A stretch of 64,000 nt of DNA from Cliona cf. orientalis (Eukaryota; Porifera; Demospongiae; Clionaida; Clionaidae). The notes beneath the pieces are model-generated. The model had not been told where the DNA came from, ran no database searches, and worked only from the letters and a program-made list of their open reading frames with translations. The number at the start of each line of letters is the position of its first letter. Positions within the stretch are counted from its first letter, which is position 1. The DNA lies in NCBI GenBank assembly GCA_963930775.1, contig OZ005700.1, positions 8,690,609 through 8,754,608 on the forward strand, read 5' to 3'. Shown in pieces: positions 7,371 to 64,000 of the stretch. The position numbers were made by a program, and so were the translations under genes.

Positions 7371-10300
7371 AGAGGTGTGTTCGTCCCGAACAATTACTTG
7401 CTGTACGAGTCTATCAGGAGGTTTGACTGCATGTCTCAAGTTGTAGCGTGCATTTGGTAGCACACTTCGATCGCTTGTTGGGGTAGTCTGATCAGTTTCA
7501 GGCTCCAATAGCTCCTGACTAGCATCATTAGTTGGTTCAATCTCTTCCTCCTGTGGTGTTAACACGTCACTGGTCTCGGTTGTTGTGTCGTCCTCTTCTG
7601 GAGAAGTTGTATCTTCAGCTGACACAATCTCGTCCTCTGGTTCGGCAGGCTCATGAGATAGCAGTTTCTCTAACCACCGGGGTACTCCACCTCGACTGAG
7701 TTTGTTTCCACCATACCAGTAAAAACCAGTAGGCCACTTAGGAGGACAACAGCATACTCTAGACTGGTGCACTTGAATTGAGCCACTTTCAGGAAAATGA
7801 ACAGGAACTACAGTCACATCTGGATCGTTCTTTTGAGTGACTCTATATGGCCCATGCCATGGCTTAGACAATTTACGTTTCTTTCCAGTTTCTTCTTGTG
7901 GGAAACGTACTAAGACCCAATCTCCACTCTTGTATGGGTGTGGTTTCACATTCGATTTGTTGTCATAACGTTCCTTGGTTCGTTTCTGTTCATTATGGAT
8001 GTTGGTAGCAGCAAGTTCTCTTGCGGATGACAGAGATAGTATAAGTTCCTCTCGATAGTCTCCAACATCACTTGGCTCAGGTGGTTCGATAGGCAATAGC
8101 GCTGCTTCAGTGGGTGATCGAAGATCTAAACCAAACATCAGAAATGATGGCTTCTCCTTTGTAGTCTCGTGAGGGCTATTCCGATAAGCCCATAAAACAC
8201 CGGGTAGAAACTTATCCCACTGTGGTCCGAACTTCACAGCATGTTTCCGTAACATGGCTTTCAAGGTACGGTTCATACGTTCTATCATACCATTGCATTG
8301 AGGATGATAGGCTGTAGTGTTCAGTTTGGTTATCCCCAATAACGAGCATACATCCATCATCACATTGGCTAGCAAGTTAGCTCCACGATCGGATAGCAAC
8401 GACTCAGGAACTCCAAACATGGGAACTATCTCCTCAGCAACGAGTCGTGCGATTCGGATGGCTTTCTGATCTGGTGCAGGGAAAACCAACGGCCACTTCG
8501 TCAAGAAGTCTTGGAAGACTATAACGTATCGATTTCCTCTCTCTGTGATCGGGAGTTCCATGATGTCCACACCGAAAATTTGGAACGGACGCTGTACCGG
8601 AATTGGATGGAGCGGAGGTACATACTTCCTTCCTGTTCCAGAGACGACTGCACAGTCAGGGCAGCTTTTGCAGAAGTCCATGACATCTCTGTAGATTGTC
8701 GGCCACCACCACTTACGACAGATCGTACTGTACAGCTTTCCACCAGAGAAATGTCCTGCATACACTCCTCCATGGCTCTCCTTAAGGATGTTTTCTCTCA
8801 AGTGTGCTGGGACGACAACACGCTTTCGATATCCAGCTTTTTGATCCACAAAGTAGAGCAATTCGTCAATGACTGCAAAGTTCAGGGCTTGCACCGTAAG
8901 CTTCTGAGCTTCTTTGGGGTCAGCAGGTAGTTCACCGTGCTCTAGACAAGCAAAAAGAGTCTCAAGCTCTGGATCCTTCCTCTGTTCCAAATGAAAATCA
9001 CTAGCAATGGCATTCGATCCTGTATCTTCTTGTAACAGGTCACTAATATCCTTCTCATTGTTATGAATAACTTGAGAAACTCGTGCTTCCACTTCCAAGT
9101 GGTTGCTCTCCTGCATAGCAACAGGGTTTCGCGATAAAGCGTCTGCTCGGTCATTCTCTCTGCCAGGGCGGTATACAATCTGTACGTCTTTTACACCACT
9201 GCCAAACACTTTTAGCCACCATCGAGCATGTTTGCCACTCGAACAAGGGGCTCCTAGCACTGTCTTGACTGCTGAGTGGTCTGTCACAACTGTTACTTTG
9301 TGACCATAGAGATAAGCTCGGAAATGCTGCATGGCCCAGACAACAGCAAGTGTTTCGAGATCTGTTACACTGTAATTTCTCTCGGTAGGCGAAAGTGAAC
9401 GACTTGCAAAGGCCACTGGGTGTAAAACACCATCATCCTGCTGCTGGGATAGTACGGCTCCCAACCCCTTTACAGAGGCATCCGTCTCCAAGACGAAGTC
9501 TACTTGAAAGTTTGGATATGATAACACAGGTGATTGCGTGATAGCAGCTTTCAAAGATTCAAAGGCCCTTTGGCACTCGGTTGACCACTCAAACACTGCT
9601 TCTTTTCGTGTTAAGGCATGTAATGGAGCGGCTACTTTGGCGAACTGAGCAATGAAACGCCGATAGTAAGATGTTAGGCCAAGAAACTGGCGCACATTGG
9701 TTACAGACTCAGGTATTGGGAATTCAACAACAGCTTTCACCTGTTTCGGATTCGGCTTCAGACCTTGCGGGGTAATCAGGTGCCCCAGGTACTCAACACT
9801 TTCTCGCAGAAAATGGCACTTCGATGGCTTGAGCTTTAAACCAGCTTTCTTCAGGCGTTCTAGAACAAGGCGAATGTGCTCGAGATGTTCCTCCAGCGTC
9901 TCAGAGAAAATCAGGACATCATCAATGTACACTTCAACGAAATCCTTTCCACTTTCTGTCTTCAAGCCGCTCAAAACTCTCTGCATTAATCGCTGAAATA
10001 CAGCTGGCGCGTTGGTAAGCCCAAACGGCATCACTCGAAACTCGAATAAACCATGATGGGTGACAAATGCCGTCTTTTCTCTGGAGGGCTTGTCGACTCG
10101 AATCTGCCAGTATCCAGACGCGAGGTCCAACGTCGTGAAATAACGTGCTTCTCCAAGCTGATCTAGAAGGTCATCAATGCGAGGAAGAGGAAATTGGTCG
10201 AGCTTGGTCACTGAATTCAATCCACGGTAATCTACGCAAAAGCGCAGTGTCCCATCCTTCTTTCGGACTAAAACTACGGGACTCGCCCAAGGACTACTCG

Positions 10301-12956
10301 AGGGCTGAATCACATTAGAAGCTTGCATTTCCTCCAGACTGCGGGCTATTTCATCCCTAACTGCAAAGGGAACTCGTCGCACCGGATACTTGCGTGGTTC
10401 AGCATCTCCTGTATCAATGTGTAGCTCGATCAGGTCTGTTTCACCTCGATCTTCCTTGCTCAAGCTGAAGACTTCATGATACTCCTCGAGCAAAGCACCA
10501 AGCCTCTCCTCTCCACGGGTTCCATCTAGCTCGGCTTTCAGAGTTTCATGTAGTCTCTCTTTTCTGTCTTCCACAGCCTTCTCTGCTGAGTTTGGGTTTT
10601 CTGTTTCGTCCGTGCCAACTTGAGATACAACTCCCTGGCTGGCTTCCATGGACTCCACCAGGTCGACGGGTAGGGCTCTGCCCACCTCTTCACCACTCTC
10701 CAACTGTTGAGTGAATCCTAAGCAATTTGTCAGCACAACTTTGGCTGTTCCCTTCTCAGCGTCAGCATCGGATACGAAGACATCAGCAACATGGATACTA
10801 CGGCTCAATTGGAGTGATTGGTTGGCTTCCAAGAGCAGTGGTCCCTTCAGACCTTCTTGTTTCCAGCTCACCTCTGCGATGATACTCTGATCTGGCCTCG
10901 GCGGTAACTTAACACTTTGCAATAGCTGCACTTTCACAGCGGGTACACTAACTGTATCACTGACTTCCTGTGGTCGAGTGTCAACTTCTGGATGATAGGT
11001 AACGATCCCTAACTGTCGACACACACCCTCGGACAGTAGTAGCTGCTCGGAGGCATCCATTTTGACGTAGACATCGGTCGTCATAGTGCAATCTTTAAAG
11101 GAAACATCCAGTTTCAGTTTCCCGTCAAGTCGAAAAGGTTTCCTGTCGTAGTTGTAGGGGGTCTTGTCTGCTGGCTTAAAATCTTTCTTGCGTAGCTTCG
11201 CCACAGCTGCAACCTTCTTAAACATCTCACCTCCAATTATGGTGACATCGGCAGCAGTGTCAATAACTCCCAGCATTGGAACTCCTCCTACTGTTACGTT
11301 AGCTCGTTGGGGTTTACTCCCCTCATCCTGCATTCGCACTTGTCTCACTTCACTTGTATCCTCAGAATCAGACAACAAGTACTGTAACGGATCATCCAAT
11401 ATCTCGGGGGAAAGAGTAGTAGTCTCAGCACTACTAACCATCTTGGTACTGGCTGGTTTGTGATTCGATCTGCCGGTACTTTCTCTCCTTGGTTTGGGAC
11501 AATTGTAAGCCATATGCCCAGTTTCGTTGCAATTCCAGCACTTTCTCGATCCTGGGTCGATACTAGCACTGCTGTTATCTCCTTTTCCTTGTTTGGACTG
11601 ACTAGCTCCAGAGCTCCTCCCTGATCTCTGTCCTGGCTTGAATCGACTTCCACCAGAAGAGACTTGAGGTTGGCTAGTTGTCTGCTTGGGCTGGGGTGAC
11701 TGATACTGCTTCCTCTTCCGCAGTTCAGCAAGTCTTCTTTCCTCGCTCTTAGCAGCAACACAAAGTGCTTGGTAGCTCAAAGCTCCTGAGACAGACGGGG
11801 CCTTCATCAGCTCATACTTCAGTCCTTCCTGCAGTTGTGCATAGAGGAGTGCATCTCTGGTCTCTGAAAGCATCGAATCGTGTCCATAGGCACGACGGAA
11901 CGTCTTCTCGATACGACGAATGAAATCATTGACGTTCTCGCTCTCTTCCTGTGCTGCATGCCGGAAGTCCTGGGCAGCCAACGCTTTGCTGCCTGGATCC
12001 AGTCTTGCCCGTAGCGCTCGCACTGCTTTCTCATAATCACTCGTTTCGCTCTCTCCCAGAAGACTCCACTCCTGGCGGGCTCGGCCTTTTAGGTGACCAG
12101 CTAACTGAATGAGCAACTCAGGCTTAGTCCATCCGTTCCAATCAGCTGCTCTCGTCAGAGCAGGTAACCAGTCGTCAAGGGTGTTCTCACTATCCTCTCC
12201 GCTGAACATCTCCACAGGAGGGGCTCTCCCTCTTCGATGTGTAGAAGGTGTAGGTAAGCTGCTCTCGGTCTCCCCCTCTGAAGGTGTACTTGGAGAAGAA
12301 GCTCTCGTACCCTCCTCAGCATGGTGCAATTTGGCCTTCAACTGTCCAATTTCTTCATCCTTATCCAGTATAGCATTGTCGAATTCGGTTAATTGAGCAC
12401 AGTTTAGACTCCACAACTTTCTATACTTCTCCTTTTCCTTCTCCAGTTGCTCCTGCAGTCTGGCTATTTCAATCTCCTTGGCTGCCTGCTGTTCTTGTGC
12501 CTCACGGAGTGCTGCTTTCAACCCCTCGACTCCTTCATCATCACTCTCAGTACCGCCCTCCCCAACAGTTTCTTCAGGGGGGTCATCAGGCTTCCCGAGA
12601 TCAACAACTATCGGCTTTACCGTCAAAAAAACTCCATCAGCGTCTTGCAGACTAATATTCACTCCGGTCTCCGCTTCGTGCAACACCGCTTGCGTGTTCC
12701 TAGGGTCATGCCCCATGTCTCCTAGTTTTCCTTCGATCAGCGTGCGTAATTCATCTCCGGAGGACGTCGCAGGGATATCCAGTCCTCTCGCCAACTGCTT
12801 CAGCAAGACTCCAGTCAATCTCTTAGAATTGAGTGGTAAGGGTCGTCCGGACCCCAGTCCCGCCCTCAACTCGTGACGTTCACGTGCTGCTTCCTCGACC
12901 TCGTGGCCCTCTGCCTCGTGGTCCGCCATATCCACCTTTTCAGTCCAAATCAACAA
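7368..12956 (-). CDS. Gag-Pol polyprotein of the Ty3/gypsy element
   Basis: A single 1,862-residue frame without a gag-pol frame break. It may start at the first Met or at the tenth residue (MADHEAEG). In order it shows a SAP-like helix pair near residues 44-77, a coiled-coil and retrotransposon-gag region, and a CCHC zinc knuckle near 470 (CWNCNETGHMAYNCP). A retropepsin follows near 565 with active site DTA (VIDTAAD) instead of the usual DTG/DSG. The reverse transcriptase carries YIDD near 1010, then RNase H (VLETDAS), an HHCC zinc finger (HGGVYAGH ... CKSCPDC) and the DDE integrase core (DIMEL, SDRGAN, MIERMN). The C-terminal tail is acidic, with no clear chromodomain. All catalytic blocks are open and look intact. 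Confidence 0.95.
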   Translation of the reverse strand: MLIWTEKVDMADHEAEGHEVEEAARERHELRAGLGSGRPLPLNSKRLTGVLLKQLARGLDIPATSSGDELRTLIEGKLGDMGHDPRNTQAVLHEAETGVNISLQDADGVFLTVKPIVVDLGKPDDPPEETVGEGGTESDDEGVEGLKAALREAQEQQAAKEIEIARLQEQLEKEKEKYRKLWSLNCAQLTEFDNAILDKDEEIGQLKAKLHHAEEGTRASSPSTPSEGETESSLPTPSTHRRGRAPPVEMFSGEDSENTLDDWLPALTRAADWNGWTKPELLIQLAGHLKGRARQEWSLLGESETSDYEKAVRALRARLDPGSKALAAQDFRHAAQEESENVNDFIRRIEKTFRRAYGHDSMLSETRDALLYAQLQEGLKYELMKAPSVSGALSYQALCVAAKSEERRLAELRKRKQYQSPQPKQTTSQPQVSSGGSRFKPGQRSGRSSGASQSKQGKGDNSSASIDPGSRKCWNCNETGHMAYNCPKPRRESTGRSNHKPASTKMVSSAETTTLSPEILDDPLQYLLSDSEDTSEVRQVRMQDEGSKPQRANVTVGGVPMLGVIDTAADVTIIGGEMFKKVAAVAKLRKKDFKPADKTPYNYDRKPFRLDGKLKLDVSFKDCTMTTDVYVKMDASEQLLLSEGVCRQLGIVTYHPEVDTRPQEVSDTVSVPAVKVQLLQSVKLPPRPDQSIIAEVSWKQEGLKGPLLLEANQSLQLSRSIHVADVFVSDADAEKGTAKVVLTNCLGFTQQLESGEEVGRALPVDLVESMEASQGVVSQVGTDETENPNSAEKAVEDRKERLHETLKAELDGTRGEERLGALLEEYHEVFSLSKEDRGETDLIELHIDTGDAEPRKYPVRRVPFAVRDEIARSLEEMQASNVIQPSSSPWASPVVLVRKKDGTLRFCVDYRGLNSVTKLDQFPLPRIDDLLDQLGEARYFTTLDLASGYWQIRVDKPSREKTAFVTHHGLFEFRVMPFGLTNAPAVFQRLMQRVLSGLKTESGKDFVEVYIDDVLIFSETLEEHLEHIRLVLERLKKAGLKLKPSKCHFLRESVEYLGHLITPQGLKPNPKQVKAVVEFPIPESVTNVRQFLGLTSYYRRFIAQFAKVAAPLHALTRKEAVFEWSTECQRAFESLKAAITQSPVLSYPNFQVDFVLETDASVKGLGAVLSQQQDDGVLHPVAFASRSLSPTERNYSVTDLETLAVVWAMQHFRAYLYGHKVTVVTDHSAVKTVLGAPCSSGKHARWWLKVFGSGVKDVQIVYRPGRENDRADALSRNPVAMQESNHLEVEARVSQVIHNNEKDISDLLQEDTGSNAIASDFHLEQRKDPELETLFACLEHGELPADPKEAQKLTVQALNFAVIDELLYFVDQKAGYRKRVVVPAHLRENILKESHGGVYAGHFSGGKLYSTICRKWWWPTIYRDVMDFCKSCPDCAVVSGTGRKYVPPLHPIPVQRPFQIFGVDIMELPITERGNRYVIVFQDFLTKWPLVFPAPDQKAIRIARLVAEEIVPMFGVPESLLSDRGANLLANVMMDVCSLLGITKLNTTAYHPQCNGMIERMNRTLKAMLRKHAVKFGPQWDKFLPGVLWAYRNSPHETTKEKPSFLMFGLDLRSPTEAALLPIEPPEPSDVGDYREELILSLSSARELAATNIHNEQKRTKERYDNKSNVKPHPYKSGDWVLVRFPQEETGKKRKLSKPWHGPYRVTQKNDPDVTVVPVHFPESGSIQVHQSRVCCCPPKWPTGFYWYGGNKLSRGGVPRWLEKLLSHEPAEPEDEIVSAEDTTSPEEDDTTTETSDVLTPQEEEIEPTNDASQELLEPETDQTTPTSDRSVLPNARYNLRHAVKPPDRLVQQVIVRDEHTS

Positions 12957-13180
12957 ATTCGTTGAGAATGTTCACGCTCCCGACGATCACACTGTCCTTT
13001 TCGAACTGTTCTGTCCGTAGACGGTAGGTACCACAACGTACGACTATATCACACTTGCTCCACCGCTAGCAGCATAGAGTTCCTTTCTTTCTAGCCCTAG
13101 CCTAGCAAGAAATAGTCTATTCTGAGGTCTACCTACTCAGTTCTCACTTTAGACTATGTCCCAAGACCGATTTACTCAGG

Positions 13181-27382: not shown

Positions 27383-30300
27383 ATGTCTAACAAAAGCAGA
27401 TCGTCTTCTAAGAGGACGTCGAAGGCGTCGAAGCAGCCTGGACTGTTGGAAACGCTAACGAGATTCGGGAAGAGGACAGCTGTTGTCGATGAAGAAGACC
27501 AAGCCACTGGCACAGTGATTGATCTGGACAGTGATGACCCAGTGAGTCAGCAAGGAACAAATTATTTAGTACTTCTCAGAATAATCCTTATTCTTAGTAG
27601 TAAAAGCTAGTGAACCAACATTGATTTTCAGGAACTTTTTGCTGTTCTTGTGTGGTGTGTCTATCTATTCATTTGGTTTGTTTTTTTTTCCAACAGTATA
27701 AATATGTTGATTCTCAAAGTCTCCTTCCTGATGACTCTGATGGCTCCGCTGCCACAGGCACGGGCTTGGATGATGATGATGACTTCATCACGACATCGTT
27801 GCCAAAGTTAACCTCTGCCCCTCCGGGTCCCACCACGCAGCACCGTAAGGCCAGAGACAATCCCGGTCTCAGCGGTGCGGGGGGCGTGTCCACTCCAAAA
27901 CGGTCCAGGGTGGTGGGCGGGGTAACAGGATCAGCCAAAAGAAAGCAAACTCAAAAATCAAAGAAAAGTAAACACGCAGTGGCTATTTACTTTCTCTAAG
28001 TGAGGATTATTGTATTATTTTACTCATGGTTATATGTAGGTTCAGTTCAGCAGGAAGAATGGTCAGAGGAAGATATGAAGGTATGCTAAAAGTGCCTATC
28101 ATAAATACCTTTGCATAATATAATAGTATATGACACTGTATGTGAGTAATGTATGCGATTTATTAAGGTATTTTTGTGCTTTCTCATGTCAGAGGGCCAT
28201 TGAGGCTAGCCTCCAGGAGAAGCAGAGAGAGGACAGGAGACAGAGACAGAAGATGAGAGAGAGCAAAGTTGAGGAAGAGGAGCAGCTGATGCTGGCTCAC
28301 TACCAGAGCATGGCTGCCATTACTGGAGGGAGGGAGGGGGAGGAGGAATGGAGAGAGGGAGATGACAATGGAACTGGAGAGAGAGATGTAATACAGCGAA
28401 AACTTGATGATTTCAATGAACAGCAGCAGTCGCCACTGACACCATCAGTGGCCAGCACCACTGCCACACCCCATCAGCTCAAATCTGCCTCCATCTCCAT
28501 AAAGAGGCTGAACATGAAGTCGCTACCAGCTAAGAAAGGCAAGAAGCCTGGTGACTTCCTCGAAGAAAAAGAGGAGGAGGAGGAGGATGAAGGAGAGGTT
28601 CAGATTGTAAGTTTACGAGATGAAGGAGAGACTATGGCTGCTCCTGGTGAAGCAGTGAATGCTGCTAGCTCGACTACGTCCGTAAAAGGAGTACCAAAGG
28701 GCATGCAGAGATACTGTATAGAGGATGAGATTGACATTGCCCCAGATGATGATTATGATGCCACACCTCCCATCTTAGGAGAAGGACTGGAGGCCAAACG
28801 TGAAGGTACTGGTGGACCCCAGGCCATTGTTTCTAAGACACCGTCAAGAGGAAAGGCTGGGAGCATCTTGGGGGGAGACCGGGGGGAAAAATCTGAGGAG
28901 GCTGTTGTTACTAAACCACCACCATCCAGAGGTGCAGCAGTCACAGCCGCTTCTTCAAAGAAACAGCCAGTGAGTGATGGGAAAGCAAAGTCAACAAAGA
29001 CGGGACTTAGTCTCAAGAAAGGACGAAAGAGACTGTCTGACTCGGGAAACAGTTCACTTCAAGAGCTACCCCACCACCCTTCCAGTGCACAGGGCCCTGC
29101 CTCAAAACGTCCAAGGGTGGAAGCATCCAACTTGAGCGATTTTAATGACACATCCAAATCTTCAGATGTTGTGTCTGCTTCGGCTAGACCAGAGTTGACT
29201 GCGAATGCTGGGCTTCCTACTAATGCCGCTAATACTGCTTCAGACATGGAGGAGGAGGTGGAGCTTACGATGAACCAAGCTCCACCCACTGAACCTTCTG
29301 TCGGTGCTACTGCATCTGAGATGGGGTCAAAGGACGCCTCAGACAATGGAGATATGGATAGAGTTGCCAAAGAAACTAGTGTCAAACATCCTCCAAAAAT
29401 AGCATCACTCACAGGCACTGAGCAAATACAAGAAATTACAAGAAAGGGAATTGATTTCAGCACGAACCAAAAGGAGAAGATAAACGACCTGCGTGGAAAA
29501 TCGCTTGAAAGAAGGGAAGAACTGACCGCCACGTGTAGCTCTGCTATTGAAAGTGCTATGGAGATCAACAATGCAGCTGCCTTGCAGTCCATGGTGAGGC
29601 TACAATCATCCAGAGCCTCTCTTACTTTGCCTACCAAAGTTGCAGATCGTGACAGAGCCACAAAAAATGCAACAGCATTTGAGCTGGTAAGAAGAGTGAA
29701 GGCGGATGGCTGGCCCCCAGTGAAGATTCAACCCTCGGAGACACCGAGACACCCCTCTCTACGGGCGCCACCTGGTGTTCTCCCTGCTGACCATACGAAG
29801 GTCCTCATTCAGTGCTTCAACGCTTACGTCACCAAGCTGGCCGTGACACAGCGCAAGGTCCTGTGGAGGATAAAGTGGGGGCAACCGGTGGTGTCTAGTT
29901 TCAACAAGGCTGGTGTAAACTCACTCACCTCCGGCAGGAGGACGAGGAGGTCGCGAGCCACCAGTATACCTTACTCGGAGTATGCACTAGATCTGAAGAC
30001 GGGAGGCCCCTCCTCGTCAAGAAGTAAATCAAATTCTCCCATGGTCTCGTCAAAGCATAGCACTCCTTCCAAGTCTCCTGTTTCAAACATCGGACAGCAG
30101 TGGAGTCCTGGGGATGAAAATGATTCAGATAGCGATTTTAAGCCTTCCAAAGGAGTGACGAAACGGATGAGCAGTAGAAAGTCAAGTCTTACCGCTGGAG
30201 CAGGCAAGACCACAACCACGCCTACTATCAAGTCACAGCGAGCCACGAAGTCGCGACTGACCCTGGGCAAGAGGTTACCTCCTCAGCTTCAAGAAGAAAG

Positions 30301-33064
30301 GGCCGACAAATCGCTATCACCTGGTGTTCAATTTGACAAGTCGTCATTGTCCCCCGGTATTCAGTTTGAGCGGGAAGAATCACCCGACATACTCCCTCCC
30401 GCAGCTGCAGAGCGTACACACAGAGAAAGTGGTGACCCCAAGCAGAAGAAGCTGTCTACATCAGCTACTAAGTCAAGTGGTCGTAGATTAGAGTTTGGAG
30501 ATACAGCAGAGAAGTCAACTCTCTCTGTCTCACCTTTGCCACCATCAGCCACCACGAATGAGTCTCCTAGAGCTTCACGTAGTGCGTCTCCTTGGTTTCA
30601 AGATGGTGGTGGTGATGTTGATAATGTGCTGGATCTTACTTCTCCCTCTCCCCCTCTTTTTCCTGCCAAGCCTCAAGAACCAACGACAGCCATTGACTCA
30701 GGTGATACTAGATCTAGAGGTGATGACTTCATGTCTAGCTTCAATGATGGGGAGAAAGATACTTTAATTAGAGAAAAGGCCGTGTTCTCTCACACTCACA
30801 TCAGCCATGATGACTCTACTGACGAAGAGGGGCATCCCCAATCAGTGGTTACTAGTGCAGCTGCCACCACCACCACAGTTGCTACAAGCAGCTCTGGTAG
30901 CTGGTTGGATTCTCGAAAGCCGCCTCCTTCTTCGCAGAAGACAAAGTCAAAGAGACAGCCAGCCAAGCAAACCAAAAACTCTAAGGCTACTGCTCAGAGT
31001 AAGAAGAAGGCAGGAAATGGAAGAGGAGGAGGGGGAAAGGGAAGGAGGCAGGCAAAGAAGACCATACCAGCTGCTCTGAGAATGAAAGCTCTGATAGAGA
31101 AGAGTGACTCTGAAGGAACAGAGTCTGAAAACAGCTCCATGGAAGATGGTGAAGGAGACTCCAGTGGCAAGGAGACAGTGCCAAAGAAGCCACCTGGAGG
31201 ACGGAAGCCAAGACCTGATAGGCGAAGAACGATGGATAGTACGGATGACGAGAGTGAGGTGACTGATATGGAGCTGGGGGAGAGAGGAGGTGGAGAGGGA
31301 GGAGAGGCAGGTTCCTCCTCCGGGGGGCTTACTTCGTGGACTGGTTCGGTGGGGAGAGGTAAAGGTGGAAAAGAGGTCACAGGGTCGAACCAGGGCAGTC
31401 GTAATCTTGAAAGGTATATTTTTTATGGTTTTTACAAGCTACATCTTATAACAGTTATACGTTCTAAATTTCATTCTCATCATCTGCAAATTTTTCTTAA
31501 TTTTTCCCTCAGTGTGATTGATCTGACAACAGAGTCCCAGGTTCCTCATGGCCACACCTCCTCCCCCTCCCCCTTCCCAGTAGCCCAATCTCCAACAGAG
31601 GACGATGATGGGTGCATCCCCTGCCCCATGTGTAACAAACGATTCGACTCCTCCGTTATCCAGCTACACGCTGAGCAGTGTGAAGGCCCCGAGTCAGAGG
31701 ACGACCACCAATGGAGGGAGAGTATCACCACCGCTGCTAAAACCACTACGGCAGCTGCTAGCGCTGGTGGTGGTGGTGGGAGGAAGAGGGAGGGTGGCAG
31801 TGGACTGAGCATGCCCAGAAAGAGACAGGTGCAGCGAGAGACGGGAAGGGGCGGAGGAAGGAGAAAGTCTTACCAGCCGTCTTTGAAGCAGCTAATGAGT
31901 AAGGAGAGAGAGGTGAGGGGAGAGGAGGAGATTGACTCTGACACAACTACTGGTCAGTTCACTAGAAGTGTTTAAATGGAGGTACATGAACAGTAAGTTT
32001 TCTTATTTTCCAGCAGACGATGACCGACTTGATCCAGATGTAAATTTGGATGACCTCATGACCTCTGATGGAGGAGGGGCAGACCCTACGGCCAGCTACT
32101 ATGCTGATACCAACCTTGACTGGACCGAGAGAGATGAATTCCACCAACCATCCACTATCTCTATCGCCACTGCCGGAGCCTCTGTTAGTGGTGGGGGTGC
32201 TTATCGAGAAGGAGCGGGGGAGAGAGAAGAGGGGCCCAGAGGAGGAGGAGGAGTCTTTGGCCAGCTGTCTGAGGATGGGGAGGAGGGAGAGGGAGGCTTT
32301 GTCATCGAGCCAAGCCCCGGTAGCACCCCTCAACCCGCTGAGCCAATGATGATTGAAGACGGAGAGGGAGGATATATCATCGATCCGAATATGATTAGCG
32401 ACTCTCCAATCAGGTGTTTCACAAAGCTGAGCGAGATGGATCCACAGGAGAGTGCCTGGTATAAGGACCAGTTCAAGGCAAAGAGCAGAGGGAGGGGACG
32501 GGGAGGAGGGGGAGGAGGAGGAAGAAGGAGACAGCTGCCGATGACCAGAGAGGAGAGAGAGTCTGCAACGTGGGGGAGGGATGATTTTGGAGACCTCTTT
32601 GGCACTGGTGGGTGGTAACAATCACTAACGTGTTATTTATTCATCTTTCATCTTGTTCATGTCATGTAACATCAGTACCATTATCATCACAATCCTCATA
32701 GAACCAAACTAAAAGTTGATTTTTCACAATGAAAATTTGCAGTGCTAATTTTATTAAATTTGAGCCATTTACATACGTATGTTTAACCATAGATATTTGA
32801 GACTTGCATGAGTGACGTACTTGTGTGCATGCATGTTGTCTCTAATATCTATGGTTGAACAAAATTTAATACATGTGCTGCTGCCGTTTTCTTTCAGATG
32901 AGAGGTCAAAAGGTCAAGGTAGACGCGGTGGCCGGGGGAGGGGTGGCTACGGAGGGAGGAAGTACGACTGGAACAGAGATCGCAGCCGAGGGAAGGGAAG
33001 AGGGAGAGGGAGAGGGAGAGGGAGGGGGAGAGCTGGCTCAAAAGCGAAAGGAAGGAACTTATGA
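27383..33064 (+). CDS. UIMC1-like: RAP80/UIMC1-like ubiquitin- and SUMO-binding DNA-damage adaptor
   Basis: In vertebrates RAP80 brings the BRCA1-A complex to ubiquitinated chromatin. Exons are 27383-27541, 27697-27967, 28040-28080, 28193-31413, 31513-31952, 32014-32607 and 32898-33064, giving 1,630 residues (human about 720). A SUMO-interacting motif at about 43-53 (GTVIDLDSDDP) is followed by a UIM at about 151-168 (WSEEDMKRAIEASLQEK). A stretch at about 690-730 (PADHTKVLIQCFNAYVTKL, then TQRKVLWRIKWGQPV) matches the Abraxas-interacting region of RAP80 residue by residue. A second SIM (VIDLTTES) precedes a C2HC zinc finger near 1266-1286 (CPMCNKRF ... LHAEQC). SPIRCFTKLSEM near 1505 matches a conserved vertebrate C-terminal block. 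The tail is RGG/RG-rich. Most of the rest is disordered. The intron 31414-31512 is 99 bases and open in frame, so it may be retained. Confidence 0.8.
32781..32860. repeat. Inverted repeat, 23-base arms
   Basis: Arms GTTTAACCATAGATATTTGA... (32781-32803) and its near-complement (32838-32860) match at 21 of 23 positions around a 34-base centre, in the last intron of the RAP80-like gene. Possibly a tiny MITE. Confidence 0.75.
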
Positions 33065-36257: not shown

Positions 36258-39200
36258 TTATTTCATCCAACCCAGATTGATATTGCCTATTACAAACAGA
36301 CTTACACAAGACACTGCGGGCATCCAGTTGCCATACGATGATCCTGTGTGTGAGGGGGATGACAACTCGGTACTGTTATGCTCAATCTGAGCTTGTTCAA
36401 GGCCATGATGATCATGTCCAGGACTGCTTTCAGCCTCTATGGCAACAGCACCTACAGTCAACCATAATATGATCATGAGCAGCGTAAAAACACACTATAA
36501 TTATTACATTAGAAAGAGGGTGCAGATACACATCGCGTATATACAATATCCCTAAATTTCTGCAATTGCTAATGCACAATGTCATGGCATTGGATGGTTC
36601 AGTTACATGGCACTGACCATTAATTTTTGTCCCAAATGGACTTTCATACTTCCATACACATGTATGTAGCAACATGTATATTATAATATATGCTCACCAG
36701 TGAGAGTGTCAGGAATCCTTTCCTGAGCGCTTGCATAGCTGCCAGCACCCTACAATAATAAATTATAGCATGAAACTAATCAGCAGTATCTAAAAATTAG
36801 TTCCACTCACAATGCTCGAGGTAGATTCGGCAGATCCAGAACGACTCATTCGTATCCGCTTATCTATAAATAAATAATTATTTCAGTGACTCTTAAACAC
36901 CACACTGAAGCTTACATAACTCCGAGTCTTTTGCCAGTTTCCCGGCAATATCCTTCTTTCCCTCGAGCTTTTCAAGGGCAGCACAAACATCACTAATCTT
37001 GAGGGGACTCTCTTTGATGATGCGATTCACTCTCATAAGCAGATCCATGTTCAATTCTTCTGGATCAGATCCTGGACGACTAGCTGACTCTTTGATGCCT
37101 TCATAATCATCATCCTTGATGATACCCTTCGAAACTAGAAGGAATGCTAGCTTCACTGGAGAAACATCGATAAACTCTGCCATGGCTGACTGAAAAGGGT
37201 GATTGATTGACCATGGACTCAAAGGCTCTGACGTAGAGCTCGCAAGGGAGCGCCCAGAGATATTGTGGTGAATACCTGGATTAAAATTTTCTGCATGCAG
37301 TGCTGTAAACATTGGGTATGAGGCTAGTTAGTTAATGAAACACTATCTACAGTCTGCAGAGTATTAGCTGCTGTATCCCATGATATTATTATGATATACA
37401 TGAGGCTATAGTGAGAGCCAACTCAGCACAATAACTGTGGTTTCTTTATCACATGTGGCATACATGTACTATACAATGCATACCTTGAGGAGGGCATTTA
37501 AGGGTAACATTTGAAGCAGGAACCGTTCTCTTGAAAAACTCCTTGGTTCCAGGAAAGGAGACTCTTGCTACTACAGCTTCAGTCGCTCTACATCCATTGG
37601 CTTCAAGAATGAACCTAGGTGGATACTGCTTGGTTTGACACATCTTTACAAGAGCTCGAGGAGAGGGATAGTCCCAGAAACACAACTCCTTTTTGTAGAT
37701 CTGTACATACACAAGAAAATTTATCATTTCTAACTGACAACACGAAGTGGTATGCACAAAATCTCATACTTTGTCGCCACCTTGCAGCGAAAAGGTCCAC
37801 CCACTAAGATTCTCTTCAAATTCTATATTGATGGCTGGATCATTTTCGTCTGAGAATACAACCGTCAAGTGCTTCAGGGTATATTCCTCGTCCTGGAATT
37901 GCTCTTCGACAGCCTGAATTGAAATGGTACTCACAAATCAACTAAACCACAGATATAATATCTCTCACCTTTAGGCATGTTGGTAGGTGGTATGATAAGC
38001 AGTAGTGAATAGCCAGCTCCCTAGACTCGTCGGTAGATTTTGGCCTGGCTTCAGTCAAGCAGAACATTGTCTGGTTGTCGATGTACTCTTTGCTATATGT
38101 ACCAACGCACCAATAGCAACAGTGCTCAGTCGAATAAGCAACGTATGGCATTACTGTCCCAAGTTCTTTGCTACGGACAGTAAAATGTGACACATTTTCT
38201 CTCGGCTGCTCCTCAAAGCGGTAAGTCGGCACGCCATTTTCAATAGTGTGACATGCTTTGAAGACTGCCAATTTACTGCAGTCGTCTGCTGTCTCGAGAT
38301 TGATGTAATGTGGCATTGCTATTACAATTGGCTTGTGAAACTTGTGCTTAGTTGTCTGGGACTGCACAGAAACGATAAGTGAAACTGGATGCATTCCATC
38401 CTTAAACTGAAAATGACCAAAGCCCCCGTGAGGCACAACGCCATGCTTGAGGGTGATCGTCTCTCCTTTGCGAACTGCCCCGGGAGGAACTGAAATGATG
38501 TAGCCATCATCCGGTGAAATGAAGTATGCTCCATCACTTGTTACAGTCAGCTCTTTTTCTCTCAACAACAGATTATTGTCATTGTTTTTCAACATCGAAA
38601 GGTGGGGCACTGTATATTGTAAATAAGAAGCGGTAGCTACATAATACATAATACTAAACATGGCGTTACTACCTTGCCATAGTTGTACTGTCCCATTAGC
38701 ATGACCCACAGCTAATACTTGGCAATCCTTAGAATATGCAACTGAGCTTGTAGCCTACAGTAATAAAAAGAGTAAACAGTGTCATGATATCCCACACAGC
38801 TATGAATTCTGTTAATAATTTCCAGCTGCATGTGAGTGAGAATGTTTCAGTTGATAAGGTCCTCAAAGCTTTCTTCTCAGTGCATTAGGACATTGTGTAC
38901 ACATACAATCCTCTCACTCAGTGTATAGCCCTGCTGGTATGTACACCCATCTATATTAGGCTAAGGCTGGACCAGATTGCTATACTCTAACAATGCCTGA
39001 TGCTGCAGGTGGTGTATGACTAAATTAATTGCTGGTTTTGCATGAGTGACTCAGCTATGTTGCCTCAACCAGATTAGTAACCTCTTACCTAGCTCATGAT
39101 AGCACAATTGTCATTGTGTGCTTACTACTACCTGTACCACATGTACATGGAGCTTCATTGTGGCAGGCTTGCATTCAGGGGCACTCTTACTTTGAAGTTA

Positions 39201-41838
39201 TGGCATCTTCAGTTTATGTTTACTTGAAGTCTTATATTATATAGCTGACCTGACATTTGCTGTTAAGTGATGCTACCAACTTTAGCGATGAAAGCAATCC
39301 TTCAAAGGATCTCATTTCACCAGTGCTCAAACCAATTGTGAGATATGAACCAGCCGGATAGAAACACAAGCTGGTAATGTATTGTGCTACATATCAAAAT
39401 TAATTTCAAATGAAATTAAGAGAGAGGCGTAATAATCATTATAAACACACCATCATTTTTGAGATCAACTGAATGTACTTGACAAGACTGTGTTTTGATA
39501 TTGTACAGCTGCAGATTCCTTCCATTCCCAATTAGTAGGCAGCTGCATACACACAATTAGATTATCAGTGGATACCACAATGGTTTAAACCAACTCTTAC
39601 TCTTCATAGGGGTGGAAGGCTGTAGTAACTGGTTTACCTTTTGCATCTATAATCAGAATAATATTATATGATCACAGATGTGCTATCTATTCATCATGCA
39701 TCACTACAAGTACAATAAAAATGTAGACTTCAGTTCTATAGCTGCACAATGGGGCATTACCATTGAACTTAAGTTCGTGTTTGAGCTCTTTTGTCTCGTA
39801 ATTGTAGAGCCTGACTCTTCTCTGATCTAGTGCACTCTTCAACTGAACAACCACCGCCATCAAAGGTTGATCAGGGTCAGGAGAAACTAACAAACTGCGT
39901 CAACAGCATTATGATTAGCTTTAATGAGCTTTAGGTACTAGCGCCTACCTTTGTATCTCTTGAGCACCTTCAATGATAAGTTGGTCGGCTTTAACTTCAT
40001 GGTTGGATAGGTTCTTAGCCAGTGAATCAATAGCATAGGGCCATACATATACGGAGCACGGTTCAGCCTTGCTGTACGACAACAGTTGTCCGTTGGGAGT
40101 GACTGATACAAACTGAGCACAGTTTGCACCCTTAAATTCAAAAGCAAAACAGTCATGGTGTGTAGAGTTTACATGCATTATACTTGTCATAATTATAAGG
40201 ACTACCTTTGTGGGATAGTTCTTAAGAGTTGTTGTTTCCTTTCTGTTATCCAAATTAACAACTTGAATGTTTGGAAAACCCACTACCAAGTACTTTTTCC
40301 ACACGTCAACTGTACCCACAGCTGTGGCTGACCAATGCTCTAGATCATGACATACCCCAGAGTCAGCAACATCGATCATATGAACCTGTAGTGATGAATA
40401 AACAATAACTAGCTAGCTAACATGGGTAACTAACTCTGTCAACTAACATGTCCTTTGGTAGTTGTAATCAGAGTGTTTGCTCCTCGAAAAACCACTGAAG
40501 AAATTCTTGATTGTGATTTGGAAACCATGGAGAGCAGCTTCCATGTTGACTTCACTGGAAATGGATTTTCCGTACGACTTAATGGGGTCTAAAGTATTAA
40601 TTAATGCAATAGTGAATTATATTATACAAGCAAGGGCTTAAGTTATAGTGACTACCTGTATACGGCTTTGTTGACGTCGATAGGTTTTTGGGGAATAAGA
40701 TGCACCTATATGGTTTGAATTAACTAACTTCAGCATCATATCAAAATGTTACCTTGGGTTGAAGCAATACTATGAGCTGAAGCAACACTACCGTAAGATC
40801 CAGCCCGGTCTCTGGTTCCAGTCTCACTTACAAGTACACCACTGTCTGCGATAACCATAATTAACTAATTCAAACAACAGCATCATACACTACTTACCAA
40901 TACTCCTTCTAAAATGATCTTTCTTTTTTTGCTCCTCTTCAGAGTCTTCTTGTAGGTAGTCCACTCTGAGCACAAATTTTGCAATCGTAATCGTTCCTAT
41001 AACAACAACTATTGGGAATTTAACACATACTCAACTTGAGCTTCCTTATCTCTCCATTGGCTTGATGATGACTGAACTTCTTTTTCTCCCCATTGGCTTG
41101 ATGATGAATATATGGGCACAGATGTACTAAATTCCTCGGCAATGGTGGGGGGTAGGGGGATAGACTCTCCATCGGGGTGGGATCGTGGCTGCTGCCACTG
41201 GGCAGAAAGGGAAGCCAGCCGAGGACGCTGAGAAAACTTGGTTGTCTTTCTGCAGCCTTTGGCTTCCCTCGTTTTTTCATCACAGCAGCTCCACTTGTTG
41301 TTGTTGACCTGACCATATGCCCCGGTGTGGTACCAGTCATACATTTCGTTGTCACTGATAGCTGAATGAAAGGAGTAAGCTTATACCACATGCAGCTGAT
41401 CTTCATTTTAACAAATCATGTGTGTGTGTACCTATTCGGAAAGCTTCCATCCACTCCTTTCTATCTTTGTCAGACTTTGCTCTGAAGTACATAATCTCCT
41501 TTTCGTCTCCAATCTGCAGCGTATAATATTATATAAACAGTTGCACAAATTGATTACACGCCGCATCCACTAACAAAGAGCCGCACTACCTCATAGCTCA
41601 CCTGAAAACAAAAGGCCTTCCCAAAGGTTACCTCAGGAACATTTTCAACAATCCTAATTCGCTCCACTGGAAAAGAATCCTTCAAGTTTGTGCCTTTCTG
41701 GCCTTCGAAGTAATCCAGCGTTCTTGTATCCAAGTGTATGTACCGCTGCTGAAATTTTAGCTTCCTCAGATCTTTGACCGATCTACCTCGCTGCCTTTTG
41801 AGCAGGTAGCCACACTTTAGCAGAGTTTTTGCAGCCAT
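36258..41838 (-). CDS. PH-Btk-propeller-ZU5-UPA-CARD-like multidomain protein
   Basis: Twenty-one exons read from splice phases give 1,180 residues in one frame (first exon 41838-41602, last 36451-36258). A PH domain (about 1-110, MAAKTLLKCGYLLKRQRG) continues into a Btk-type zinc motif (YHTGAY..., WSCCDEKTREAKGC). A disordered linker follows. Residues about 290-618 are WD40-like beta-propeller blades (VTTAFHPYEDCLLIGNGRN; VLAVGHANGTVQLWQ). The exon 38609-37969 begins a ZU5 domain at about 635 (GAYFISPDDGYIISVPPGAV) that ends with NVSHFTVRSKELG. A UPA-like beta region covers about 760-950. A CARD-like helical domain is at about 995-1075 (VSKGIIKDDDYEGIKES ... MRVNRIIKES ... VCAALEKLE). The C-terminus has a short hydrophobic stretch, but a good donor (TGT|GTAAGT) inside it suggests another, unseen ending. 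I know no protein with this order. It is probably a membrane-recruited signalling adaptor or sensor. Confidence 0.8.
38755..39249 (-). other. 495-base intron of the PH-ZU5-CARD gene
   Basis: The largest intron in this gene. Apart from AT-rich sequence I see no repeat, exon or RNA gene in it. Confidence 0.5.
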
Positions 41839-59800: not shown

Positions 59801-62800
59801 AAGGCTGGGAGAGAGAATCGAATTGCGAGTTGAAGTTGTCATTTGTACTTGAAATATTTCACTTGTTTGGATAGGCCTGGAAAGCTTGTAGATCAAAAGG
59901 GGAGAGGAGGAACTGGTTACTGAAGGAAGATCGCTAATTCCTGACTGGTGAAAGGTAAATGTTTTCAAAAGGATCTCTGCTAAGCGTTTTTGATCCTGAT
60001 ATTCCGAGAGATCAAGCTTACAAACACTTTGGAGCTCAGTCCATACGGCTTGAGGCATGCCATGAGTGTATGGAATAACACTTAGTGCAATCTTGTGCTC
60101 AACTAGATTGGAATGTTCACTAAGGATATTTCCTTCAGGAACAAAGAGACTAATGTTAGCACATCTTTTCTGGCCGTGACCATCATCATTACTGGCTGAT
60201 GTTATAAATTGATGATTCAAAAAGAAATCTCTTGCAGTACCCTTGAAATATGCTACTTTCACTTGCCATATAACAGACTCTGTAATGGAAATATCAGAAG
60301 ATAGTTTGTTGGATGGTTCTGGTGACATCTCTCGTCCTTGAACAGAAGGGATTGATAGAGCATTCAAGTGCTTTAAAGCAATTACTCTCTCTCGGGCATA
60401 CAATACCTTGAGGTGAGGGTCAGCAAATGTAAGTTCAATTTCTGCATCTTCTGTGATTCGCTGAACAAAACTGACATAATCTTGGCTTACACTTTCAAGA
60501 CTTGAGGCCAGATCCAGCCTTTTGACTTCTCGATCATACTTATTGGAGTTTTTTTACTGCTTTCTTTACCTGTTCACACATCTCAACTAGTTCCTTTTTG
60601 TGGTAAGGGCACGCTCTTCTGTTGATTGCAGCATGAAGAAGGCGCTGTACAACTATGTCAATGTAACGCCGAATAGGTGAGGTGGAGTGGGTGTATTGAG
60701 CACATTGCAGAGTATCGTGCCAGTACTCTCTGATGCCTGAGTCACTCACAATGTAGTCGGTTCTGCAAGCCTTCCTGCTTTGACGCAAACCAACAGTGGC
60801 CACACCTATCTGTGGGTGCAAGTGCTCAAATTGAACATAGTGTAATGCATTTCTGCACAACTTTTTGTAAAGATAATCCTTAATTTCTGCACACATACTC
60901 CGTAGAATTTGAATCTGATCAACAGGCTCTTGGCCTGGAAGGATATACCTCCTTAGACCGAGAGATAGTGCCATTGCTGGTCCATGGTTCTTCCTAAGGT
61001 TTATAAGTTCACTATCCGGTGGTTTAGGCTGTACTCTTAAGATGGTCTGCTCAGGGAAGGTCTTCAAGAGTTTAAGGGCTACATGACTATTTGCCCAAAT
61101 CATTAGCTCTTCGATAAGATAATGAGCTTCTGGACACTTTTGTTTCTCTGGTTCATCAAGTGTGAAGCTATATGCAGCATCCTTGCCTAATCTATTTTGT
61201 CGGATGAATAAGGCAATTTTCCACAGACATGCAAGCTGATCTTCAATGTTTTCATGAACTGCATTATAGCAAGCAATCTTAGTTTGAAGTGAATGACTGG
61301 GCTCCTTAAATAGAATTTGCTGTGCCTCCTCATAAGTTAATCCCAATGCACTGTTTACTGTGGATTCCTTAAACATTATGCTGTCTGGAACCTCCTCTAC
61401 CTCTCCGCTTTTGTTGATTAAGTATCGACCAACAACTGAAAGGGTGTTTCTTGACTCACCTTCTGTGATGCTGAGTTTAGTTTGAACCATTTCTTCAGGA
61501 AGCATGCTACTAATACATTGATCTGCGGACCGATAACTAGAGCACCCTCTATTACGTGCTTCCTCGTCAAGCTCACTGTCCTTAGGAATGTGAGACTGAA
61601 CGTCTATAATGTGCACACCTATCTCATACTCGACTCCCTTTCCTGCTGAAGAATTTAATCTGCAAGTAAGTGCATCATCATGATCAGCAGAACCTTCAGG
61701 ATCGATGGTGAAGGCACCTCTGAATTGGTATCGAGTGATAAAATGACCCTCTTCAGCCATTTGTATCTGTGGGACACTTTTTACCGAGCAAGCACCTAGG
61801 GGAATATTATTGCTAATCCTCAGTGCAAGCTCACCTGTGTAGCTGGAGTGACCAGGTGGTAGGGCTGCAATGATAATACCCAAGGGATATGGGTATTTCT
61901 TTTGCCAGCCCAAAAATTTAACCACAAAGAGCATTTTGGCAGCCACCTCAAGTGGAATAAAATCGCTAACCTTAGGAGTACTATTAATCGATTTGGGGTC
62001 AAAGCACACTACACCCTTACACGTATGAATCAATAGCATTGGAAGATTTGCAAACTTGGGATAGCGATGGTCAAGTGGGAAGAATAAAATTGGATTCTTT
62101 GGATCTACTCGGCAAGGAAAGGAAGCACCAAAATAAGTGCTTGAAAGAGCATCTTCTGTTTCTTCATCAAAAAGCACACGTTTGCGTATAGTATCAACCT
62201 TTACGATACCCTCATGGAATGTACCCCGGCGGCCTGAGACACTGGAGCTACTTAATTTGATAGGCTCTTCCTTGGAATCAAGTGGATTTGCAACAGCTTC
62301 ACGGAAATTCTTACAGTCCAGCTTACACCATAAAATTCCGGATTCAGTTTGTGCTTCTGAGTCCTCTAGTACCCACGAAATATCACCTGAGGGGCTCTGG
62401 ATAAGCTTTGTTGCCAGCTTATACTCCTGTCTCTTGTTCAGATCATCAATATACCGCTCCATAATGAGATCAATCGCATTATAATCAAGCTCTTCATCTT
62501 CAAGTTGTTGAATGCTCCCACTTAAAAGGACCTTTTCACATATTAGACCAATGATTCTTGGCAGGCTCTGTGCACTGAGCATTGAAACGTTGGCAGGAGG
62601 AATGAAGGACTGGCATTGAACACAACGACGAATATACTCTGTCCAACAGTTAATTCTGTAGTGGGAGCCCATATGAAGGAGAAAGAATGGATTTCCAGCA
62701 ACGAAGATGAGGGACTGAGCTCGAGTGATAACTGTATTGAATACATACTCATTGCATATACTTTTGATACGATCAGCAGGTGCCCCATGTGCATCGGTTG

Positions 62801-64000
62801 GCTCAGCTGTACTGAGAAACACAGCAGAAAACTCCTCACCTGTATAAGTGGAATCACTGATTATACAATATTATGTGCTAGATAGTAACAACAATAATAT
62901 TATTGATCATACCTTGTATGTTGTATGTTGGAAGGATCTCCACTAGGATACCACGAAGGTTTTGATTTCTCTTCATGTTTCTCCATTGTTTTCGAAGGCA
63001 AGCAACCTAAAGGTAGAATTTGTGCATCACATCATTCTGCAAGCTATCATGTTAAAACTCTCTTACCTGCTGCTTAGTAGAGGCGAGTAAACCAATTGGT
63101 TCAGTGGGAGGAGTTGGCCACGACTGTATGTACTCAAGCATCTTCGTGATGAGTAATTTGGCTTCCTCCTCATTTTCAGGCCGACAATTTGTGAAATTAC
63201 CTTGATTCAAGGAAGTACAGGCAAACATAAGTGGATAAGGAGCATTAGGATGAGCTTCCCGTCGACTTTCACTGATTAGTGTACACTCATAGAAGAGGCT
63301 TGAAGCCAACATCAAAATGCTGGGATGACAGCGGTAGTTGGTCAGGAGAGTAGATGAGGTGAGGGAATCGCCTGTTGCTTTATAACAAGAATAAATCCTT
63401 TCAAGAAGCGATTCACCAAGTCCATTATTCCGAGCCTTTTCACTGAGTACACGAACTTGTGGCCCCACCTATTCATAATAGTCCAAAATAATCTCGGTGA
63501 CATACGAGATGTATGATATTGTACTCACCTGTTTATTATCTCCAAAGATGACTACTCTTGTAGCTGCTGAAGCTAGTACCAGAGCACCAAGAGCCTCAGG
63601 CTCTGGGCACTGAGCACCTTCATCGATCAGGAGGTGAGTAAATTCTATGCCCAGATCGACCATACCCAATGCCACTCCAAAGGTTGTAACTAGGACGGAA
63701 AAGTCATATGCTGAATGACTATTGAACTGAAGATCGACTACTGAAGCCCTATCATAAAGCCGTAAATTATTTGCTGCCTCCGTACTTCCCACTACTCGAG
63801 CAACGTGACACTCAATATCCTTCACCTTCTCTTGTAGACTTCTATAGAGACCATCAGCACCTCGGTTTAAGTGGGTGCACACTAATACTTGATTCCCTCC
63901 TGCCTTTACAAGTTTCGCTACAGTTGCGGCCAGTAAGTAGGTTTTACCTGTTCCAAAAGGACCAAGGAGCAGGTAAGGGACACTAGGATTGCAAGAGAGC
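56866..64000 (-). CDS. HELZ2-like: HELZ2-like helicase-RNB-helicase, 5' end outside window, one frame break
   Basis: Exons on the minus strand are 64000-63529, 63468-63067, 63006-62913, 62839-59172, 59095-59007, 58937-58755, 58695-58513, 58456-57828, 57769-57521, 57449-57287, 57221-57024 and 56963-56866, about 2,140 residues. The first Upf1-like SF1 helicase has GPFGTGKT, LLIDEGAQ, FGDNKQ and VITRAQSLIFVAGNP. An RNB exoribonuclease follows, with all four acidic residues (TIDPEGSADHDDAL) and the arginine block STSPIRRY. The second helicase has GPPGTGKS, VDECGMA, GDHKQLRPV, TESQGSEYG and VGITRCKYGLVIVG. This order is that of vertebrate HELZ2, an interferon-induced helicase and 3'-5' RNase. Just after the RNB the frame shifts by one base in an A7 run (60549-60555); conserved-looking sequence continues on both sides. 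Confidence 0.88.

What the first reader, a model, noticed from the sequence alone, without database searches (positions are those of the whole stretch)
36258..41838. New architecture: PH-Btk-propeller joined to a ZU5-UPA-CARD-like module
Twenty-one exons join in a single 1,180-residue frame. PH plus Btk zinc motif is known from Tec kinases and GAP1-type RasGAPs. ZU5-UPA followed by a death fold is known from PIDD, UNC5 and the NLRP1/CARD8 FIIND-CARD end. I know no protein combining them, with a beta-propeller between. The order suggests a lipid-recruited sensor or adaptor whose C-terminus could nucleate CARD assemblies. Domain calls are by eye; the UPA and CARD calls are the weakest.
Basis: partly seen in the sequence, partly recalled or inferred. 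Interest (0 to 1): 0.9.

Follow-up and report, generated by a model that had tools for sequence, protein, structure and literature searches.

The report
New PH–propeller–ZU5–CARD-like animal gene
A single 21-exon gene, probably from a sponge, joins a PH-Btk front end of the kind that binds membrane lipids, a propeller and a ZU5 module to a CARD-like cell-death-signalling end, and a second, now broken, copy elsewhere in the same genome shows that this unusual combination is real and long-lived.

The parts
36258..41838 (-). whole gene, 21 exons, 1,171-aa reading frame
   Evidence: all GT-AG, one frame; colinear paralog
41357..41820 (-). PH domain, residues 7-108 (exons 1-3)
   Evidence: Pfam PH E 1.5e-13; Src-associated adaptor PH E 2.1e-6 and Tec PH-BTK E 2.4e-6
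41240..41332 (-). BTK zinc motif, residues 117-147, with one His and three Cys
   Evidence: Pfam BTK 26.3 bits, cut-off 24; genome scan; same four residues in the paralog
40541..41239 (-). linker, residues 148-303 (exons 3-7); exon ends less certain
   Evidence: 30% identity to the paralog over residues 148-300
38581..40540 (-). WD40 beta-propeller, residues 304-628 (exons 7-15)
   Evidence: several Pfam propeller models, best E 2.4e-15; propeller proteins in PDB, best E 1.9e-10
38125..38547 (-). ZU5 domain, from residue 640 (Pfam core 640-726)
   Evidence: Pfam ZU5 25.2 bits in the whole protein, 27.5 in the piece, cut-off 21; ZO-1 ZU5 E 3.9e-8 with a family profile
38116..38124 (-). H-C-C at residues 781-783, at the place of the HF/S self-cleavage site of PIDD (placed by eye)
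   Evidence: alignment A1: His and third-position Cys invariant in 7 of 7; survey
37484..38115 (-). UPA-like region, residues 784 to about 947 (exons 15-17); call not confirmed
   Evidence: position after ZU5; introns after residues 832 and 880 shared with L015, L016, L022, L023, L035; no Pfam UPA
36917..37210 (-). CARD-like six-helix domain, residues about 975-1072 (exon 18)
36258..36863 (-). tail, exons 19-21; end uncertain
   Evidence: 32% identity to the paralog over residues 1073-1108

Best explanation
One gene encodes a cytosolic multidomain adaptor or sensor. Step 1 (inferred): the PH-BTK unit, of the Tec-kinase kind, places it at phosphoinositide-rich membrane. Step 2 (inferred): the WD40 propeller, long enough for seven blades, binds a partner or ligand. 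Step 3 (inferred from UNC5b, in whose structure ZU5 packs on the death domain; that this is an inhibited state is recalled): ZU5 and the UPA-like region hold the C-terminal CARD-like domain until the complex is engaged. Step 4 (inferred): the freed CARD-like domain binds or nucleates partner CARDs, of which this genome has at least 49 Pfam matches. Shown here: the domain order, the death fold of the last domain as a model, and the maintenance of all parts together by selection. I put about 0.9 on the architecture being one real gene and about 0.5 on this mechanism.
For: 21 exons in one frame. PH, BTK, WD40 and ZU5 by Pfam. PH-BTK matches Tec and BTK structures, and PH alone a Src-associated adaptor. 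Colinear paralog with 17 of 20 window introns matched within three residues and dN/dS of PH 0.13, BTK 0.16, WD40 0.27, ZU5 0.25, UPA-like 0.22, CARD-like 0.26; linkers and tail less constrained. A stretch just before the possible internal Met of exon 18 is conserved in the paralog, so that Met is probably not a separate gene start. CARD-like fold: of the first 41 rows, 38 are natural CARDs or death domains and 3 are designed proteins. ZU5 profile matches ZO-1 at E 3.9e-8. ZU5-death-domain interface of UNC5b: passages of PMC3210808.
Against: No transcript or protein evidence. UPA not found by Pfam or in PDB sequences. The CARD-like domain has no sequence match to CARD, and Foldseek gave no match with E at or below 0.001. 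PH: the alignment to Tec keeps the Arg of the lipid pocket but not one of its Lys (residue roles recalled). The only other copy found in this genome is broken. The paralog has 7 of 24 introns without a partner in the window gene; two of these are the frame break and the transposon read as introns.
Confidence: 0.55

Rival explanations
1. FIIND-like sensor: the ZU5 cuts itself at the H-C-C site by a Cys-driven acyl shift, and the UPA-CARD fragment is released on demand, as in NLRP1 or CARD8.
For: ZU5 then CARD-like order. His and third-position Cys are invariant in 7 of 7 aligned ZU5-UPA members. D'Osualdo 2011 (PMC3210808, abstract and passages) says acyl shifts can use Ser, Thr or Cys.
Against: The Phe before the scissile bond, which that paper describes as important in CARD8, is Cys here. 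The paralog has Cys in place of the His at the aligned position, next to its frame break. UPA itself is unconfirmed.
Confidence: 0.15
2. Two genes read as one: a PH-BTK-propeller gene followed by a ZU5-CARD gene, or a separate gene starting in exon 18.
For: One long intron (39249-38755) and an internal Met in exon 18.
Against: The contig 17 copy has the same order and mostly the same introns across both junctions, and conservation runs upstream of the internal Met.
Confidence: 0.06
3. Scaffold without death-type signalling: a ZO-1 or ankyrin-like membrane scaffold whose terminal helical domain is only a binding module.
For: The ZU5 profile is nearest to ZO-1 in PDB; ankyrins also have ZU5-UPA-death domain (recalled); PH-BTK and WD40 suit a scaffold.
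Confidence: 0.24

Closest known systems
UNC5 receptors (UNC5b cytoplasmic part, PDB 3g5b)
   Same: ZU5, then UPA position, then a death fold
   Different: UNC5 has a netrin-binding ectodomain and a membrane span (recalled); here PH-BTK-WD40 stand in front; only the ZU5 part aligned to 3g5b, at E 0.35, which is not significant
NLRP1 / CARD8 (FIIND-CARD)
   Same: ZU5-UPA followed by CARD
   Different: no NACHT or LRR among the families shown; self-cleavage site reads H-C-C, not SF/S; UPA unconfirmed
PIDD1
   Same: repeat domain, then ZU5-UPA, then death fold
   Different: LRRs and two ZU5 in PIDD1 (recalled); propeller, PH-BTK and one ZU5 here
Tec/BTK kinases
   Same: PH followed by BTK zinc motif; Tec PH-BTK E 2.4e-6
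   Different: no SH3, SH2 or kinase among the families shown
DED-TRADD-N-WD40 proteins (PMC8195603, passages; Branchiostoma by its figure legend)
   Same: death-superfamily domain and propeller in one chain
   Different: TRADD-N instead of ZU5, opposite order, no PH-BTK mentioned

Membership tests
Tec/BTK kinases | PH domain | tested here: met
   Pfam PH E 1.5e-13
Tec/BTK kinases | BTK zinc motif after PH | tested here: met
   26.3 bits, cut-off 24
Tec/BTK kinases | SH2 and tyrosine kinase domains | tested here: not met
   none among the best 25 of 28 families shown; residues after BTK are linker, WD40, ZU5, UPA-like and CARD-like
ZU5-UPA-death-fold proteins (UNC5, PIDD, ankyrin, FIIND) | ZU5 | tested here: met
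   over Pfam cut-off; ZO-1 E 3.9e-8
ZU5-UPA-death-fold proteins (UNC5, PIDD, ankyrin, FIIND) | UPA after ZU5 | tested here: inconclusive
   no Pfam UPA in 7 of 7 members or in the genome scan, which rang in no control either and so does not show absence; no UPA structure by profile; shared introns only
ZU5-UPA-death-fold proteins (UNC5, PIDD, ankyrin, FIIND) | C-terminal death fold | tested here: met
NLRP1/CARD8 FIIND | self-cleavage motif with Phe before the bond and Ser after it | tested here: not met
   H-C-C at the aligned place; motif from PMC3210808
NLRP1/CARD8 FIIND | cleavage in vivo or in vitro | not testable with these tools
   needs expression
CARD | six-helix death fold | tested here: met
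   six helices; matches
CARD | sequence match to the CARD profile | tested here: not met
   no CARD hit at E 10 for exon 18 or for its paralog; hence only 'CARD-like'
CARD | CARD-CARD binding or filament formation | not testable with these tools
   needs an experiment

The most novel reading that the evidence does not exclude
A phosphoinositide-gated, inflammasome-like sensor class in an early animal lineage, in which ZU5 modules with a Cys at the cleavage position (H-F-C or H-C-C, seen repeatedly in this genome) cut themselves by a thioester route instead of the Ser route of PIDD and NLRP1, and release a CARD at the membrane.
Probability: 0.1. Interest if true: 0.85.

Novelty: new variant of a known kind. 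Interest (0 to 1): 0.56.

Why it matters
It ties a lipid-recruitment unit known from kinases directly to a ZU5-CARD-like signalling end, which would let an animal start a CARD complex at a membrane without a kinase or an NLR. It adds a concrete, testable member to the many lineage-specific death-fold architectures reported in a sponge, and the genome's ZU5 genes with Cys at the cleavage position pose a simple biochemical question. Sponges are already known to be rich in such combinations, which limits the surprise.

Tried and rejected
Rejected: the two-gene reading (paralog order); an apparent H-F-T motif about 20 residues before residue 781, because alignment with other ZU5 genes puts the cleavage place at H-C-C. 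My first automatic gene model was too intron-happy and was replaced by hand curation. A sequential exon finder for the paralog went wrong in the linker exons and stopped at exon 15; it was replaced by a spliced aligner. The aligner forces weak alignments: of 21 loci tried, I kept six by eye (L015, L016, L022, L023, L025, L035) and dropped fifteen; L025 is believable only to about residue 860. In the trimmed run of eight loci, the weakly aligned L028 also placed introns at both shared points and L024 at neither within three residues of the first; I did not count these two.

Led nowhere: protein database search of residues 600-1090, none of 6,835 candidates; residues 1-640, 5 proteins among the 7,998 candidates scored, with many propeller families in their precomputed domain lists. 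These nulls are weak. The database does hold close relatives of another open frame of this window, but it admits only proteins of 0.55-1.75 times the query length, so exon-sized pieces of relatives could not appear. Scans with exon 15 found no relative among 15 pattern matches in bacterial/archaeal contigs and 5 in viral contigs, as expected. The ZU5-UPA piece alone found only two myoglobins in PDB. AlphaFold2 of exon 15 was too poor to use, pLDDT 39.8. A single-sequence helical model can reach middling Z by chance (note); the case rests on the gap between death folds and unrelated rows. A genome-wide search with the ZU5-UPA piece never ran.

Full report
What is there. Reading the reverse complement and choosing splice sites by hand gives 21 exons, all GT-AG, one frame, 1,171 residues, from 41838 to a stop at 36258. 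The linker exons 4-7 and the last exon are the least certain.

Domains. Pfam on the spliced protein gives PH (7-108, E 1.5e-13), BTK motif (117-147, 26.3 bits, cut-off 24), several WD40 propeller models between residues 304 and 644, and ZU5 (640-726, 25.2 bits, cut-off 21); 28 families matched at E 10, of which the best 25 were shown. In PDB sequences the PH-BTK region matches 10 distinct sequences at E 0.01, led by a Src-associated adaptor (2.1e-6, PH only) and Tec (2.4e-6, PH and BTK motif), then BTK. The propeller matches 21 distinct sequences at E 0.001, mostly WD40-type proteins by name. A profile of seven ZU5-UPA pieces from this genome matches ZO-1 ZU5 at 3.9e-8 and 1.1e-6; UNC5B comes at 0.35, behind an unrelated glutaredoxin at 0.26, so that match is not significant. 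The window's ZU5-UPA piece alone gave only two chance hits.

The UPA call. After ZU5 comes a region of about 165 residues ending in a conserved Tyr-Pro motif. Pfam's UPA is found in none of seven members, while ZU5 is found in six of the seven. It is not found in this genome at E 0.001 either, but that scan rang in no control genome, so it does not show absence. A profile of the region finds no UPA structure. What supports the call is position, and introns after residues 832 and 880: L015, L016, L022, L023 and L035 have introns at both points (L023 two residues off at the second), and L025 at the first only (eight loci run, L028 and L024 set aside as weak alignments). This is a shared ZU5-plus-C module in this genome; that it is UPA is inferred.

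One gene or two. Exon 18 searched against the whole genome gave 4 matches at E 1, two of them the gene itself and two on contig 17. The contig 17 DNA holds the whole order: PH, BTK, propeller, ZU5, UPA-like, CARD-like. By domain, identity and dN/dS are: PH 62%, 0.13; BTK 49%, 0.16; WD40 51%, 0.27; ZU5 58%, 0.25; UPA-like 54%, 0.22; CARD-like 62%, 0.26; the linkers and tail are 30-37% identical. dS is 1.1-2.4 in these domains, so the ratios are rough. From the two lists, 17 of 20 window introns have a partner within three residues; the other three lie in the linker (2) and tail (1). Of the paralog's 24 introns, 7 have no such partner; one of these is the frame break and one the transposon. A propeller search of the genome at E 0.01 found only these two genes (11 matches, 7 and 4). 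The paralog is no longer intact: its frame breaks in ZU5, and a DNA transposon of about 6.2 kb with long inverted ends (arms of 127 and 121 bases) sits in the CARD-like exon. So one apparently intact and one broken copy remain, and the arrangement was kept under selection before the break.

Setting. The genome (216.8 Mb) has at least 38 ZU5 matches, at least 49 CARD matches (exon 18 is not among them) and 11 BTK-motif matches at E 1, 8 of them over the cut-off, including this gene, its paralog and three neighbouring PH-BTK genes on contig 17. All these are lower bounds; the contig 17 paralog's own ZU5 is not in the ZU5 list.

Mechanism. The best guess is a phosphoinositide-recruited adaptor whose CARD-like end is held by ZU5(-UPA) and released on engagement. 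Lipid recruitment, holding and release are all inferred from Tec, UNC5b and CARD biology (recalled, apart). Self-cleavage of the FIIND kind is doubtful. D'Osualdo 2011 (PMC3210808; abstract and passages seen) reports SF/S in CARD8 and NLRP1 and HF/S in PIDD, with an important Phe; here the place reads H-C-C, and the paralog has Cys instead of the His. In the 20 of 38 ZU5 loci that I fetched, read by eye, the place is H-F-S in 2, H-F-C in 5, H-C-C in 2, H-F-T in 1, and lacks the His in 10. In the seven-member alignment the His and the third-position Cys are invariant. Whether a Cys version cuts is open.

Novelty. Paper searches for ZU5 with sponge, death domain and CARD (5 papers), ZU5 with UPA and WD40 (2), Btk motif/WD40/PH domain/ZU5 (at least 3 of 4 terms: 0), ZU5 with Porifera (4) and with Amphimedon (6) listed no paper on such a protein, judged by titles, abstract starts and the passages named next. 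Two broader searches (24 papers, 15 listed; 22 papers, 10 listed) showed none in their listings. I saw passages only of PMC12909245, PMC8195603 and PMC8260672, and the abstract and passages of PMC3210808; supplements and subscription papers were not seen. PMC8195603 describes 357 TRADD-N proteins in Amphimedon, up to half with unique architectures and most joined to death-type domains, propeller combinations in another lineage, and UPA-Zu5 fusions. The present case is therefore a new variant of a known kind rather than a new kind.

Noticed in passing
L014 2893-9086 (contig 17 paralog): A DNA transposon of about 6.2 kb with long, nearly perfect inverted ends and, by eye, a short target duplication interrupts the CARD-like exon of the paralog; one of its frames has HTH_21 similarity below the cut-off.
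   Followed up: partly
L014 near base 1930: The paralog's frame breaks within ZU5, beside the place of the self-cleavage motif.
   Followed up: partly
L016-L035: Several ZU5 genes of this genome have Cys instead of Ser at the place of the FIIND/PIDD cleavage Ser (by eye H-F-C in 5 and H-C-C in 2 of 20 loci).
   Followed up: partly
L001 1192-3039 (-): A frame that looks like signal peptide, short ectodomain, membrane span, then ZU5, resembling UNC5 in order; judged by eye.
   Followed up: no
L038, L042, L043 (contig 17, 1350-1368 kb): Three neighbouring PH-BTK genes with PH domains like the window's; no propeller like the window's was found there.
   Followed up: partly
L015 7-7199: Another ZU5-UPA-like gene lies directly downstream of the contig 17 paralog.
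   Followed up: partly
L005 649-1938 (+): A ZU5 gene with a weak, below-cut-off CARD match at its N-terminus (12.6 bits, E 0.14).
   Followed up: no
window 7371-12971 (-): One 1,867-aa open frame with zinc knuckle, reverse transcriptase, RNase H and integrase: a Ty3-type retroelement by its domain order (type recalled).
   Followed up: no
window 28127-31972 (+): A 1,282-aa open frame with no Pfam family at E 0.001, only a weak C2HC zinc finger.
   Followed up: no
window 60543-62870 (-): RNB exoribonuclease with relatives up to 91% identical in the protein collection, apart from the window's own entry.
   Followed up: partly
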